Assembly: GCF_000203795.2 (NCBI RefSeq)
Contig: NW_006281114.1
Span: 1 to 64,000, forward strand
Source: Batrachochytrium dendrobatidis JAM81
Lineage: Eukaryota > Chytridiomycota > Chytridiomycetes > Rhizophydiales
DNA length: 64,000 nt
Direction: 5' to 3'
The notes beneath the pieces are model-generated. The model did not search any database. It was not told the origin of the DNA and saw only the letters and a program-made list of their open reading frames with translations. The translations under genes were made by a program, and so were the position numbers. Positions 10,139 through 63,365 of the stretch are shown one piece after another. Position 1 is the first letter of the stretch, and every line of letters begins with the position of its first letter.

Positions 10139-10545
10139 TACAGCTCTAGTCACGTAGAATGGATTATTTTTTTGTATTTGAAATGACTGTTTATTGGAAA
10201 TGTTGGCTTTACACGCAACCAAGGAATATCTGGCACGATCGTGGCATTGAAGAGACTTTGTTCTGAAAACTCGCAAATATGCTCTAGTTCAAGATAGCAA
10301 CGATTACACGTTTCAGGAATACATACCATTTCTGCATGCCAATCACCCAATGTTCACTTGTAATGAAGAGTTGAAAGATGTGGAATTTATTACAACTGTG
10401 ATGTGAACAGAGTTGTCTTGTACAAAAATAGACATGAGACCAGTAGACACAATCTGATAAATTAGTGTAGATTATCATTTCATGAGACTGCTGTTTATTG
10501 TGTATTTTAACATTTATTATTCCATTTTATGTGAGTGCGGCTATA
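10139..10545. mobile_element. Inverted-repeat (MITE-like) element, copy M1
   Basis: Left end TA-CAGCTCTAGTCACGTAGAA (from 10139), right end ...TTTTATGTGAGTGCGGCTA-TA (to 10545). A CATTTCATGAGACTG block and GTTTATTG (10475-10500) precede the right end. It fills most of the space between RBM42 (start 10016) and the LRR gene, whose stop codon is only 10 bp beyond the right end. No coding capacity. Confidence 0.65.
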
Positions 10546-10555
10546 TCAACAAGAA

Positions 10556-12937
10556 TTAAGTATCATTCAGCCGTCCATCTTCCAGCAGTAGTTTTGGCTG
10601 CCATGAAATTATTTTGCCGTGGAATCCACTGCCAAAACTTGACACATCATCATAGCCTGTGCCTTCCTTTGATTCGTCCCTTCTTACCAGCATTACCGAA
10701 TCATCCCCCAAACATGTTTCAATACGATCCAAGCACATGTCTCGTAAAAGAATATCTAAATTGCGTTGTTGAGCAGTAGATAGCAAGGCCTTTAGATAAC
10801 TCCGTAGTGTTTTTGGATCTGATGCAAGATCTGTCAAAGGTTGACTAAGCAGTCTCAACGCAGATGAGTTGGCTGTGGCCTGTGTACCATCGCCAGTTTT
10901 GTTTAAAATGTATGAATTCAAAGCCAAGCTTCTTTGGTCCTCGTAAAAGCTCCGAGAGGAGGAGTTGTACAAAGTGCCAGTCATTTCTAAACTACGGCGG
11001 TTGATTTGGGAAAGAGAGAGAGGGTCATTAAGAACACGGTTTCCTAGGCGATGCAAACGCATGCAAATACGATCCTCGTCAGTAAAATTAGATGGCTGCT
11101 CATCGATACATGGGACTGAATTAAATGAGCTGAGAGTAGCGGTAGTGTCGGTTCTGTGAAGAACAACAAATTGTGGAGTATGTGTTGAGCTGGTTTGATC
11201 GTCTGGCATTCCTGAAAGTGTCGATCGACTGCTGTTGTGTGGAAGTAAACGCATACGGTTCAAGGCATCAGTATAATCAAGACTAGAGCCTGCTTTGGAA
11301 CGCATAGTATTGTGCAGGTTTTCTGATTGACCAGTATGGACAAGGTCGTCAGTACCAGCCAACCCCCTTCTGGACAATTGTCCAAAGGGAGAGGATTTTT
11401 CACCACCTCTGTTTTGCTGGGCAGAACGTCGCTCTTTACGGTAATAGGTGACCCTGATTGTGATAAAGATAAAAACTGAAAGGATAGATATACATGCAAC
11501 CAAAAGACCAGCAATAGCAATGTTGGAGAAGGGAGTGCCGCCGCCTTTCGATTCTTTAGATGGACTATTTGCTCCATTTGCAATTCCTTTTAGATCCGAA
11601 TCTAAACACCATTTCAAATGTCATTATAGAATGGCGGCTTAGTGACTAATAAACAAAAGTATGCTGAAAAGCATGGTGTTTTAATAATTGAACGGGTTTG
11701 CTTTCTATACCTTGACAGATTCGTACACCCTTGGTACAAATAGCATCCTTGGCGAGGGTGTTGGGAGCACACATATATAAGCTCTCTAGGTCGCATGTGG
11801 TCAGACCTGGCATACGGGATAAATCAGGGACAAGATCAAACACATATGTATTTGAAAGATTACTGTCATTTATATTCAAAGATGAGCAAGTTTTAATGTT
11901 CAAGGTCTAAAAATCTGTTTTGTATACAATGGGTTGAATGAGACTTACAGATAGGACAGTGTAGGAAAAGTGACAGGAATATCCCAAGGAATATCGCCCG
12001 AGATCATAGTATTTGAAAAGTCACTACCAGTAAGATTTACCGTTACAGGGTTAGCTTTGGACTGCAGTTGAAATAAAGGCAAGGTAGCTTACATATGTCT
12101 TAGAGTAGCACCATTAGAAAGTCCACTTGGAAGCAGTCCAACATGGCTATTTCCATGCAAATCAATATATTGTAGCTGGTCCAGACTCGATAAATCTAGC
12201 AAATATTGCATTTCACATGTCGATTTATCGTATGAGCACCAGTCATTTAGTATTTGATGGGTGAATTCGAAATAAAAATAAGTTAGAAATAGACTAGGTT
12301 GAACAGAGTGGTTGAAAGCGTTACAAGGAATGGTAGCCCTATACAGCCTTGAAAAGAAATCAAGGCAAAAGGCGTAGTTGAAAGCGAGAGTACAGGACCC
12401 ATCCAGCAGTCATTGCACTCCAAATGATTGATGTTCAAGATAATACATTACCAGGAACAGAGCCAGTTAGTTGCTTGTGATTATGAAGAGCAATCAATCT
12501 CAAATGAGTCAAGTTTCCTGGGAACCCAGCTTCGGATAAGGTGCCTTGCAGAGTATAATTGCTGTGACCATCGATATAGCTGAGAACAAGTTCCAAAAGG
12601 TAAAAGTCATGAATGTTAGGATTAAAAGTGCAAGACGATAGCAGAGTATATTTCAAACTCACATCTCAGTGAGGTTTGGACCATCGCATGAAACCCAAAT
12701 GCCTGGAGGCAGAGGGGAGTTGGACAGTAAGCGCTGCAGGATCGTAGGAGCACCTAAAGACCCGCTAGACCACTTGCAGCATTTTGGACCGAGTTCTTGG
12801 ATAATAGTGGGCGGTAACAAGGTGGATAGCATTTGAATCAGTTGCAGACATGATGAAGCTTGAGTAGCGACAGCTTTAGACTTTGGTTGAATGGTGTTGG
12901 TAGTGCCGGCATTCGCAGGACCATCACTTTGCGACAT
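10556..12937 (-). CDS. Leucine-rich-repeat receptor-like single-pass membrane protein
   Basis: Several exons on the minus strand. The first large exon (12937-12660) has an LRR N-cap-like region: CLQLIQMLSTLLPP, CCKWSSG and GIWVSCDGPNLTEM. Short exons follow with plant-type LRR units (FPGNLTHLRLIALHNHKQLT, LSSLDQLQYIDLHGNSHVG, then DIPWDIPVTFPTLSYL) and a Cys-containing C-cap (TTCDLESLYMCAPN). The last exon (11617-10556) has one transmembrane helix (IAIAGLLVACISILSVFIF), a basic stop-transfer YYRKERR, and a roughly 270-residue Ser/Arg-rich cytoplasmic tail with no kinase domain. A signal peptide is not visible before MSQSDG, so a 5' exon may be missing from my model. It probably senses an extracellular ligand or acts in adhesion; no ligand can be inferred. 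Confidence 0.72.
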
Positions 12938-12976
12938 TTGGTGTAAGATGAAGTGAATTCAAGCCTTGAAATTATT

Positions 12977-61013: not shown

Positions 61014-62690
61014 TTAGATCACCTGCATGTAGTTGCTCGGAACAATGCCAATATTAGTCTGTCCATCTGCTTTGACTTGACGTGCTTGCCACCATTTGCC
61101 TTGTATGTCCACCACTTCAAGTGTATCTCCTTTTTCAAATGTCAACTCTGTCGGATCTTCAGGGTTTGCTTTATCTATTGAACAAGTCAAATACATGAGT
61201 ATAGAGCATAATCAAATACAAACAGTTGGATACTTACAGGAATAGACTGCTTTTACACGATGCATATATACGCCATTATTAAGATTACTACCAACGCTCA
61301 TATCAGAATCGGGTCTAGGACCTCCAACGCGTTTTTGGTCGCTCATTGGAATCTCAATAAATGAACTTGGGTGTTCGCCAGATTTTGGTGGTGGTACCAC
61401 GCCATTATTGGGTGTCGTGCTCTGTAGTATCGTTAGTGGTACATGCTGGGTGGACATAGATTGGCGATCTGAATTGGCATGGTGATGAGATGGTGCTGAA
61501 GCATTTACGTTATGGCTTGGGAGATGCGAGTTGCCTTGGTCAGTCTTTTGTATTGGGTTTGGAACGCGAAGCATAAATGGCGGGAGTTCAACAGCACCTT
61601 TTTCAACACCAAATAGAAACACGTTGATAAACTAGAACAAAATAACACCTGGTTAGAATCATACAGGTGCTGTTGGGTTGAAAAATAGTACCAAGAAAGT
61701 TTCTAGCCAACAAGATCAAGGTTTACCATGGCAGCTAGAATACAGAAAACGCCTGCAGCACGAAGTCCACCTGCAGAAGCCGATATTCCATTCGATAGCT
61801 GGGAAGTAATCACTCCAGAATCCATATCTTCAACTCCAAAAGCAATGCAAAGAACAATACTTGCTATAATCTAACATATATATTCGTCAAATAAAAGACA
61901 CGCATAGTGTTGAATTCAAAAAGGGCGTTAGCTTATTGGAAAATACAGCCATTTACTATTGGTGAATCCATAAATAATATTAAAATGAAAACTCGGATTG
62001 TCAACAGATATTCATCCAGTATTTAAACCAAGACGTTGACATCAAACTAGTTGGTATGCACTTTGTATTGATTTTTAGTATTAAACAGCCATTTACTACT
62101 TACTGGGAAGCGATATACAGCAATGCAGCCATTTAGCACTACCATAATCATACCAACAATAGACACGAGATAGACTGCCAAAAAAAACCATTGAAATCGT
62201 AGTGGATTGATGGTGTAAACAAACTGGTTCTGTTGCTGCTGAGCAATACAAACCCCAACAAAGTCCAGCAACCATCCAAGCTAAACACGACATAGAGCCA
62301 AAGATATGAGTTAGTAAAAAGTTCATCTTTTAGTACAGCTGTAATGCCATCAAAGTCGTGCATCCCATTAACTGAACAGATAGTACACTGCAGTTTAGTT
62401 TGGGGTGTGTGGACTCGAATGGTCTCAGTCATCAGACACCCAGTCATAAATTTAAACATTCATCATTATTCCCTAACCCCAAGCGTGATCATTTAGCTTA
62501 ATGCTAGCTGCAGGATATCAACATACAGGTGTAAATATTCAGTATATATTGCATTTATATAACCTACCGAACTAACAGATAAAGTCAAGACAATAGGAAA
62601 TCCACATTTGTTCAAAAGCGTCGAGGTTAAATGCTGCTTAGGGGCAGATTCAGGCGACTGTTGTGGATACGAAGCTTGAGAAGTAGGCAT
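61014..62690 (-). CDS. SHO1: Sho1-type osmosensor (4-TM plus C-terminal SH3)
   Basis: The plasma-membrane adaptor of the HOG osmotic-stress pathway. ATG 62690 (MPTSQASYPQQSPESAPKQH) leads into membrane segments spread over short exons: FPIVLTLSVSSVG, LGWLLDFVGVCIA, FQWFFLAVYLVSIVGMIMVV and IIASIVLCIAFGVED, then GVFCILAAM and FINVFLFG. After a disordered linker of about 110 residues (61622-61260) the SH3 domain reads HRVKAVYSC, NPEDPTELTFEKGDTLEVVD, IQGKWWQARQV, GIVPSNYMQVI: the ALYDY, WW and PSNY signatures of Sho1. The C-terminal SH3 binds Pbs2 in yeast. Seven or so exons. The SH3 ends exactly at the stop, as in yeast. Confidence 0.9.
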
Positions 62691-62739
62691 TTTGTAATTC
62701 AAACGGGATAAAATCGAATGAAATTGAATTACAAGTATT

Positions 62740-63365
62740 TACAGTCGTGTTCACGCACAATAGAACTCGGCTATCAAAAAACAATTGAAAAGCGTTAAAT
62801 TGTATTATGCATTGTACTTTATTGATATAGTAAATCTCGATGCAAATTTGAATACATCGAGACGTAGCCATCAACCAAGTCGATGCAAGCTTAAATTCAA
62901 TGTTTGGCTTGTATACTCAATGGAATAAACAACCCTGGCCATTTTATGTATAGTTTCGCATAAATATTAGTTTATTGTATGTATACTATTCAACCGCCAT
63001 CATGTGAATTGCCGTGTTGAATAATGGAAAGCTTATTTTAGCCAATAGTCTATTGAACTTGCTCAATGATCAAACGTTTGCAGCTTGGATGACTTCAATT
63101 GCTTTGATATAAGCTTTTGATGATTTTCCGTATATTCGACATCGGCCTGTCTAGAGCCGTGTATCAAACAAGGAAAAGGATATTCGAGACCAGCAAGGTT
63201 CGATTGACATGAAGCTTGTCCGGATTTTTCCTCTGTCAAACTCTCAATGTCTGATATAGATCTACTTTAAATCTACATATTCCAGTAAACTGACACCCAT
63301 CACTCCATGATACTGACTGTTTACATTTGACTCTTAGTAGTTCATTCTGTGTGAATACAGCTGTG
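62740..63365. mobile_element. Inverted-repeat (MITE-like) element, copy M9 (composite or nested)
   Basis: Left end TA-CAGTCGTGTTCACGCACAA (51 bp from the Sho1 start codon). Two candidate right ends: a decayed one near 63020 (GTTTATTGTAT, then CCATCATGTGAATTGCCGTG) and a better one at 63365 (CTGTTTACATTTG, TTCATTCTGTGTGAATACAG, CTG-TG). Either one longer element or two adjacent ones. It occupies the divergent Sho1/HGD intergenic region. Confidence 0.5.

What the first reader, a model, noticed from the sequence alone, without database searches (positions are those of the whole stretch)
10139..63365. A new short inverted-repeat element family (about 9 copies) that fills intergenic regions
Scanning the gaps between genes shows the same two ends again and again: on the left TA-CAG(C/T)CGTATTCACG(T)AAAATGG, on the right the reverse complement CCATTTTACGTGAATACGG CTG-TA. 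Copies: 10139-10545, 12977-13358, 14930-15439, 26849-27288, 42580-42923, 45241-45710, 54364-54880, 60576-60931, 62740-63365. The left end is always on the left and the right end on the right, so each intergenic gap holds one complete element. Just inside both ends lie AATAAAC / GTTTATT and a CATTTCATGA(A/G)ACT block, extending the inverted region to roughly 75 bp. No copy has an open reading frame of note. Ends starting CAG next to TA, with TA at both sides, fit a Tc1/mariner-type MITE; this class call is inference. I know of no description of this family.
Basis: partly seen in the sequence, partly recalled or inferred. Interest (0 to 1): 0.88.

Follow-up and report, generated by a model that had tools for sequence, protein, structure and literature searches.

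The report
Decayed chytrid jumping-gene fragments between genes

Summary
A whole-element model matches all nine window places; by end profiles six are A+B pairs, one is a pair with a doubtful left end, two show one end only. The host is Batrachochytrium dendrobatidis JAM81. The end motif occurs 2,281 times genome-wide at up to 3 mismatches, against 1 for the reversed control. Each element has two different ends, A and B, sharing a ~28-bp inverted tip: 48 of 49 pairs are A+B. Near-identical pairs (97.4-98.5%) share little beyond the element, and the flanks tested matched only themselves, so the unit has moved. A 1.66-kb relative (L054) carries, between an A and a B end, a broken DDE_3 (Tc1/mariner-type) transposase fragment reading toward A; L053 is alike but its B end was not found. 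In 30 of 40 scored copies the shared interior starts at about the same point, suggesting one deletion founder. Best reading: a MITE family made by internal deletion of a Tc1/mariner element. TA duplication is inferred, not shown; no intact transposase was seen. Known kind, apparently unnamed family, about 5% of the sampled 264 kb.

The parts
10139..10545 (+). complete element, A end left (10137-10201), B end right (10474-10545); interior holds a decayed copy of the shared 3' region
12977..13358 (+). complete element, A end left (12975-13050), B end right (13262-13359)
14930..15439 (-). complete element, B end left (14929-15037), A end right (15340-15441)
26884..27274 (-). one-ended copy: A end right (27181-27274), B end not found; the claimed left arm at 26849 is not supported
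42580..42923 (-). complete element, B end left (42578-42671), A end right (42819-42924)
45241..45710 (+). complete element, A end left (45240-45343), weak B end right (45664-45713); arms poorly complementary to each other
54364..54885 (+). element with good B end right (54779-54883); A tip too decayed for the end model, whole-element match 54378-54885
60576..60931 (+). complete element, A end left (60573-60654), B end right (60824-60934)
62740..63365 (+). degenerate element: good B end right (63279-63367), weak left tip (62737-62769, 15.7 bits, best match B); whole-element match only 63277-63371

Best explanation
These are non-autonomous DNA transposons (MITEs), mostly a few hundred bp long (49 pairs, 170-808 bp, median 416), of a Tc1/mariner-type (DDE_3) transposon family in Batrachochytrium dendrobatidis. 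The parent, seen here only as broken copies of about 1.6 kb, had the same two ends, with a transposase gene reading out toward the A end and a second region of unknown coding status next to the B end. An internal deletion removed most of the transposase and the middle and left A end + last part of the second region + B end; that derivative was then moved in trans by the transposase, which recognises the ~28-bp inverted tips (and perhaps the inner AATAAAC), inserting at TA within TTAA-like sites by cut and paste. SHOWN here: paired directional ends, mobility of the unit, a DDE_3 fragment between the same ends, a shared interior starting point. INFERRED: TA duplication, cut-and-paste, mobilisation in trans, the role of AATAAAC, the deletion and its single founder. 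No intact transposase was seen, so the family is probably inactive or nearly so in this strain.
For: Paired ends: 48 of 49 facing pairs under 1 kb are one A and one B end (1 is B+B; 27 ends unpaired) in 354,570 bp. Mobility: L012/L013 97.7% over 533 bp, L014/L015 98.5% over 456, L010/L011 97.4% over 385, C8 243582-244078 vs 243211-242715 98.2% over 497, similarity stopping within about 10 bp of the element ends; one query of nine joined flanks matched only their own halves (18 rows), so no sign of segmental duplication. Flanks: T at -3 in 63, T at -2 in 64, A at -1 in 60 of 78 ends (39 of 49 pairs with readable tips). Parent: L054 635-2296 has an A end, a PF13358 match (5.4e-9) reading toward it and a B end; L053 (95.9% identical over 1,502 bp, another locus; PF13358 8.7e-8) has the A end, B end not found. 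DDE traces reading toward A also lie in L002 (E 6e-5), L010 (1e-4) and the ~375-bp element at L054 206-581 (5e-4). Four of 90 DDE places lie within 600 bp inside one of 100 listed ends, 0.24 expected (one of the four is L010 again). Interior start: 30 of 40 scored loci begin to match L052:560-1120 at position 234-250; C2:424743 and C32:981518 have DDE (to 493) next to 1362-1366 of the L054 query. Elements avoid coding segments: 0 of 24 overlap them by over 20%, while these cover 36% of the stretch.
Against: TA duplication is not demonstrated: a 2-bp direct repeat in 20 of 39 pairs against 17.6 with shuffled partners (p 0.17), and no empty site found. TTA is about as conserved as the first tip bases, so it could belong to the element. 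The DDE match covers only the second half of the domain; the first catalytic D and a DNA-binding domain were not seen. Nineteen loci, 95-97% identical, hold only the DDE fragment, so part of the link could be passive dispersal. In L054 one weak DDE-like trace (753-830, E 0.002) points away from the A end. L053 and L054 are 96% alike inside but the match does not run through the A tips, unexplained. L014/L015 share about 9 bp beyond one end, and the outermost bases of L010/L011 differ at one end.
Confidence: 0.84

Rival explanations
1. The short elements are MITEs of some other superfamily (or with no target duplication), and the DDE_3 fragments are passengers captured or dispersed with subtelomeric DNA.
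For: Nineteen near-identical DDE fragments without the rest of the element, at least 9 of them within 25 kb of a contig end; TA duplication not shown.
Against: DDE traces in four elements with both ends (L002, L010, two in L054) and in L053, reading toward A, with one weak trace against; 4 DDE places next to 100 listed ends against 0.24 expected; TA at the boundary fits the superfamily.
Confidence: 0.1
2. Host elements kept by selection, for example two-way 3'-end or poly(A) signals: both ends carry an inward AATAAAC.
For: AATAAAC faces inward in 15 of 56 A ends and 22 of 63 B ends, outward in 2 and 3; for the shorter AATAAA the bias is strong in B (30 against 5) but not in A (19 against 16). 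Elements lie outside coding segments.
Against: Placement follows the noncoding expectation: 15 tandem, 8 divergent, 1 convergent of 24, expected 60%, 30.5% and 9.5%; near-identical copies have jumped; copies are decayed (median 75% identity to majority, 48 copies).
Confidence: 0.03
3. A dispersed family of small real genes (frames annotated as BATDEDRAFT_28053, BATDEDRAFT_21419, BDEG_28144) of which the elements are pseudogenes.
For: One 108-aa open frame spans most of an element, and 139 matches to its 95-aa part were found (150 of 267 candidates scored).
Against: Mismatches show no third-position excess: 201/1157, 241/1172, 219/1177, and 12, 10, 8 for L052 against L053; 6 of the 10 best places hold stops; no Pfam match; copies share transposon ends.
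Confidence: 0.03

Closest known systems
Submariner MITEs of Pandoravirus salinus and their decayed Acanthamoeba parent (PMC4495683; abstract and passages seen)
   Same: Short non-coding elements with inverted tips and TA at the ends; a relative carrying a disabled Tc1/mariner transposase with similar tips.
   Different: 30 copies, 243 bp, nearly palindromic with ~100-bp arms; here a far larger family, ~28-bp tips and two different ends. For Submariner the paper shows a paralogous empty site; none was found here.
Stowaway MITEs of plants (PMC6881990; start of abstract seen in a search listing; TA target recalled)
   Same: Short elements derived from and mobilised by mariner-superfamily transposons.
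   Different: Plant elements; no sequence comparison was made here.
DD39D mariner-like elements (meaning recalled; the term was seen in listing 75 and in the reference list of PMC4495683)
   Same: 39 residues between the D of ILDN and the acidic residue of NPADN in the L054 frame.
   Different: Only a fragment; first D and DNA-binding domain not seen; no tree was built.
Bulk Bd repeats in genome papers (PMC5364385, PMC11797018, PMC12204190, PMC9926174; passages seen)
   Same: Probably contain this DNA: JEL423 has 4.45 Mb unclassified and 0.80 Mb DNA-transposon repeats (PMC11797018).
   Different: The passages seen name Mutator, CACTA and Maverick types as the commonest; the word mariner occurs in none of the four main texts, and MITE in neither of the two searched for it.

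Membership tests
MITE | Short (about 100-600 bp), high copy | tested here: met
   49 pairs, 170-808 bp, median 416 (five are over 600 bp); 41 loci in 264 kb.
MITE | Terminal inverted repeats on both sides | tested here: met
   48 of 49 pairs are A+B with shared ~28-bp tips; 27 ends unpaired; tips readable in 39 of 49.
MITE | No transposase coding | tested here: met
   Local copies hold only short or broken traces; no codon-position bias in the frame tested.
MITE | Target-site duplication | tested here: inconclusive
   TA beside most ends but not separable from a conserved TTA; no empty site found.
MITE | Dispersed by transposition | tested here: met
   97.4-98.5% identical pairs with unrelated flanks that matched only themselves.
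Tc1/mariner superfamily (IS630-Tc1-mariner) | DDE transposase of the superfamily between the same ends | tested here: met
   PF13358 E 5.4e-9 in L054 between A and B ends; fragment only. That PF13358 marks this superfamily is recalled.
Tc1/mariner superfamily (IS630-Tc1-mariner) | Complete acidic triad and helix-turn-helix | tested here: inconclusive
   Second and third acidic residues seen (spacing 39); first D and HTH not identified in the broken frames.
Tc1/mariner superfamily (IS630-Tc1-mariner) | TA target-site duplication | tested here: inconclusive
   As above.
PIF/Harbinger | 3-bp TWA direct duplication | tested here: not met
   Left TTA, right TAA, not a direct repeat: 0 of 39 pairs have a 3-bp direct repeat at the boundary used.
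piggyBac | TTAA direct duplication | tested here: not met
   0 of 39 pairs have a 4-bp direct repeat at the boundary used; no 4-bp excess at p < 0.05 at outward offsets 1-8.

The most novel reading that the evidence does not exclude
The parent is a Tc1/mariner-type transposon of unusual build: a transposase with DD39D-like spacing and a second, oppositely facing protein gene between asymmetric ends, found so far only in Bd, whose single deletion derivative seeded thousands of intergenic copies.
Probability: 0.13. Interest if true: 0.6.

Novelty: new member of a known kind. Interest (0 to 1): 0.4.

Why it matters
If the estimate from one 264-kb stretch holds (41 loci, 5.1% of bases, scaled to about 3,600 loci and 1.2 Mb), this one family would explain a notable part of the Bd repeats that published annotations leave unclassified. 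It gives a class, ends and a likely parent for masking, shows that some annotated hypothetical genes overlap transposon debris, and offers many insertion sites as possible markers for comparing Bd lineages.

Tried and rejected
Target duplications of 2-8 bp at outward offsets 0-8: nothing convincing; offsets 3 and 5 at k=2 gave p 0.014 and 0.018 among 63 tests, and the position-by-position matrix showed no clear diagonal. Empty-site search for nine young copies: none. Poly(A)/terminator role: placement not biased in 24 elements. Second region as a selected gene: no codon signal, no Pfam. Rfam: no match in four loci or the window. PF03184: no match, but the control was silent too, so uninformative. 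PDB sequence search with the L054 fragment: none. Structure model of the DDE fragment: mean pLDDT 29, so no fold search. Protein homologues: only Bd records (2 of 3, 1 of 12 and 1 of 30 candidates); the search is word-seeded and length-limited, so other hosts are not excluded. First end-classification script timed out; one search replaced it, and left 6 of 74 ends unclassed when the models were built.
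Full report
WHERE. The window is C8:1-64000 of a 23.49-Mb, 33-contig genome. A 95-aa piece read from C8 is 100% identical to part of BATDEDRAFT_28053 of Batrachochytrium dendrobatidis JAM81, recorded on a contig of 562,684 bases, the length of C8.

OBSERVATION. The end motif is far above chance: 1,125 forward and 1,156 reverse places at up to 3 mismatches, reversed control 1 and 0. 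I built two profile models, since the ends fall into two kinds after the first ~28 bases: A (tip, then a TTGCAGTGA..GGAATAAACAATGG-like stretch) and B (tip, then ACTAAATA..ATAATAAACAGCCAGTCTCATGAAATGATTGG) (68 of 74 ends could be classed). In C8:1-264000 they give 67 calls (32 A, 35 B); three shuffles gave 0, 0 and 1, the reversed sequence 0. In 354,570 bp (C8:1-264000 plus L001-L030, which were picked for an exact motif and are therefore biased to good ends), 125 ends form 49 facing pairs under 1 kb: 27 A..B, 21 B..A, 1 B..B; 27 ends stay alone. So the elements are directional, not palindromes. Some lone ends are diverged subfamilies: three ~305-bp copies in C8 (170.9, 178.8, 189.4 kb) carry a recognisable tip at the other side that the B model misses; two of their three pairwise matches are 97.7% and 98.4% over 306-312 bp, the third is listed as 92.2% over 358 bp.

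THE NINE COPIES. By end profile six are A+B pairs; 62740-63365 is the one B+B pair, its left tip weak; 54364-54880 and 26849-27288 show one end each. The whole-element model matches all nine places, only in part for 26849 and 62740. Raw arm complementarity is at random level for 26849 and unremarkable for 45241 and 54364.

MOBILITY. Near-identical pairs share the element and lose similarity within about 10 bp of its ends (L012/L013: 1496-2028 for an element at 1499-2025; L014/L015 run 9 bp further on one side). A query of joined ~60-bp flanks of nine such copies matched only their own places (18 rows, 8 of 8 candidates scored), so the copies look like separate insertions into unrelated DNA; the tool warns that it skips very common words. 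The same result means that no empty site was found inside this genome. Median identity to the majority sequence is 75% (48 copies): activity was long, with some recent events.

TARGET. In the 39 of 49 pairs with readable tips, T stands at -3 in 63 of 78 ends, T at -2 in 64, A at -1 in 60. No direct repeat of 3 bases occurs at the boundary (0 of 39). TA as the duplicated dinucleotide within TTAA/TTTAAA fits, but because nearly all ends carry TA the shuffled-partner test cannot prove it (20 observed, 17.6 expected).

PARENT. A 108-aa open frame in the element at C8:230183-230629 led to longer relatives. L051/L052 (99.2% identical over 1,584 bp, a segmental duplicate pair) keep more of the region upstream, plus the B end. 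A further search placed two matches about 0.8 kb from PF13358 hits in the opposite orientation. L054 shows A end | DDE_3 fragment reading toward A | second region reading toward B | B end; L053 shows the same without a detectable B end. Pfam DDE_3: 5.4e-9 (L054) and 8.7e-8 (L053). The second and third acidic residues are 39 apart; what DD39D means is recalled, and the first D and helix-turn-helix were not found. DDE traces point to the A end in L002, L010, L053 and both elements of L054; one weak trace (L054 753-830) points the other way. Of 113 rows for the DDE piece genome-wide, 112 lie in open frames of at most 172 aa; one row (C9:296381) is listed in a 5,790-aa frame that I could not inspect. 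So no intact transposase was seen; introns could hide one.

HOW THE SHORT FORM AROSE. With L052:560-1120 as query, 30 of 40 scored loci (283 candidates) begin to match at position 234-250; the others begin at 1, 1, 25, 25, 74, 114, 173, 174, 274 and 324; 12 further rows are secondary pieces. Two loci (C2:424743-425277, C32:981518-982185) have the DDE part next to the same downstream point. I read this as a deletion founder with a larger intermediate; only coordinates, not letters, were seen for these loci, and a later addition of the upstream part in the longer copies is not excluded.

SECOND REGION. Frames are open over up to 195 codons in L051/L052 and are annotated as genes, but the codon-position tests are flat and Pfam is silent. 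Whether it ever was a gene is open; that is the core of the novel case.

WHAT IT DOES TO THE HOST. None of 24 paired C8 elements overlaps my ab initio coding segments by more than 20%, and neighbour orientation follows the noncoding expectation. No host role is indicated. The inward AATAAAC is more likely an inner transposase-recognition motif than a host signal (inference; its inward bias is clear in B ends, less so in A ends). Scaled from 264 kb, about 3,600 loci and 1.2 Mb. The motif density of C8 (28 ends at up to 3 mismatches; 2,491 if scaled) agrees with the genome-wide count (2,281).

LITERATURE. Nine searches listed no paper whose title, abstract start or seen passages describe a MITE or mariner family in Bd; Repbase and subscription papers were not searched. 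Passages seen: PMC5364385 (Bd repeats 17.1%, DNA elements 1.3 Mb, unclassified 2.2 Mb), PMC11797018 (JEL423: unclassified 4.45 Mb, DNA transposons 0.80 Mb; Mutator, CACTA and Maverick commonest), PMC12204190, PMC9926174, PMC6572847, PMC4495683.

VERDICT. An ordinary kind of thing at high density, with a plausible parent identified: a new, apparently unnamed MITE family of the Tc1/mariner type in Bd.

Noticed in passing
window 32807-32891 and 33001-33085: 85-nt inverted repeat, 99% complementary, 109-nt loop, unrelated to this family; part of the loop has 20 diverged relatives (75-85%) elsewhere in the genome.
   Followed up: partly
e.g. C21:9567-9995, C2:10410-10841, C8:553477-553905: Nineteen loci, 95-97% identical, of a ~430-bp DDE_3 fragment, at least 9 of them within 25 kb of a contig end, as if spread by subtelomeric exchange.
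   Followed up: no
C31:671988/675273/678509, C31:973736/977061/980300/983567, C13:55402/58621/61839: Transposon-derived matches recur at 3.2-3.3-kb spacing, which suggests tandem arrays of a longer unit.
   Followed up: no
C8:203917-205143, 222112-222630, 228843-230057 (L044-L047): A repeat of up to 1.2 kb, 98-99% identical, of another kind; two of the three copies lie beside or overlap elements of this family.
   Followed up: no
window 4780-4865 and 7172-7257: 86-nt direct repeat at 78% identity; origin not examined.
   Followed up: no
C8:230183-230629 and L052: Annotated hypothetical proteins BATDEDRAFT_28053, BATDEDRAFT_21419 and (JEL423) BDEG_28144 overlap transposon debris.
   Followed up: partly
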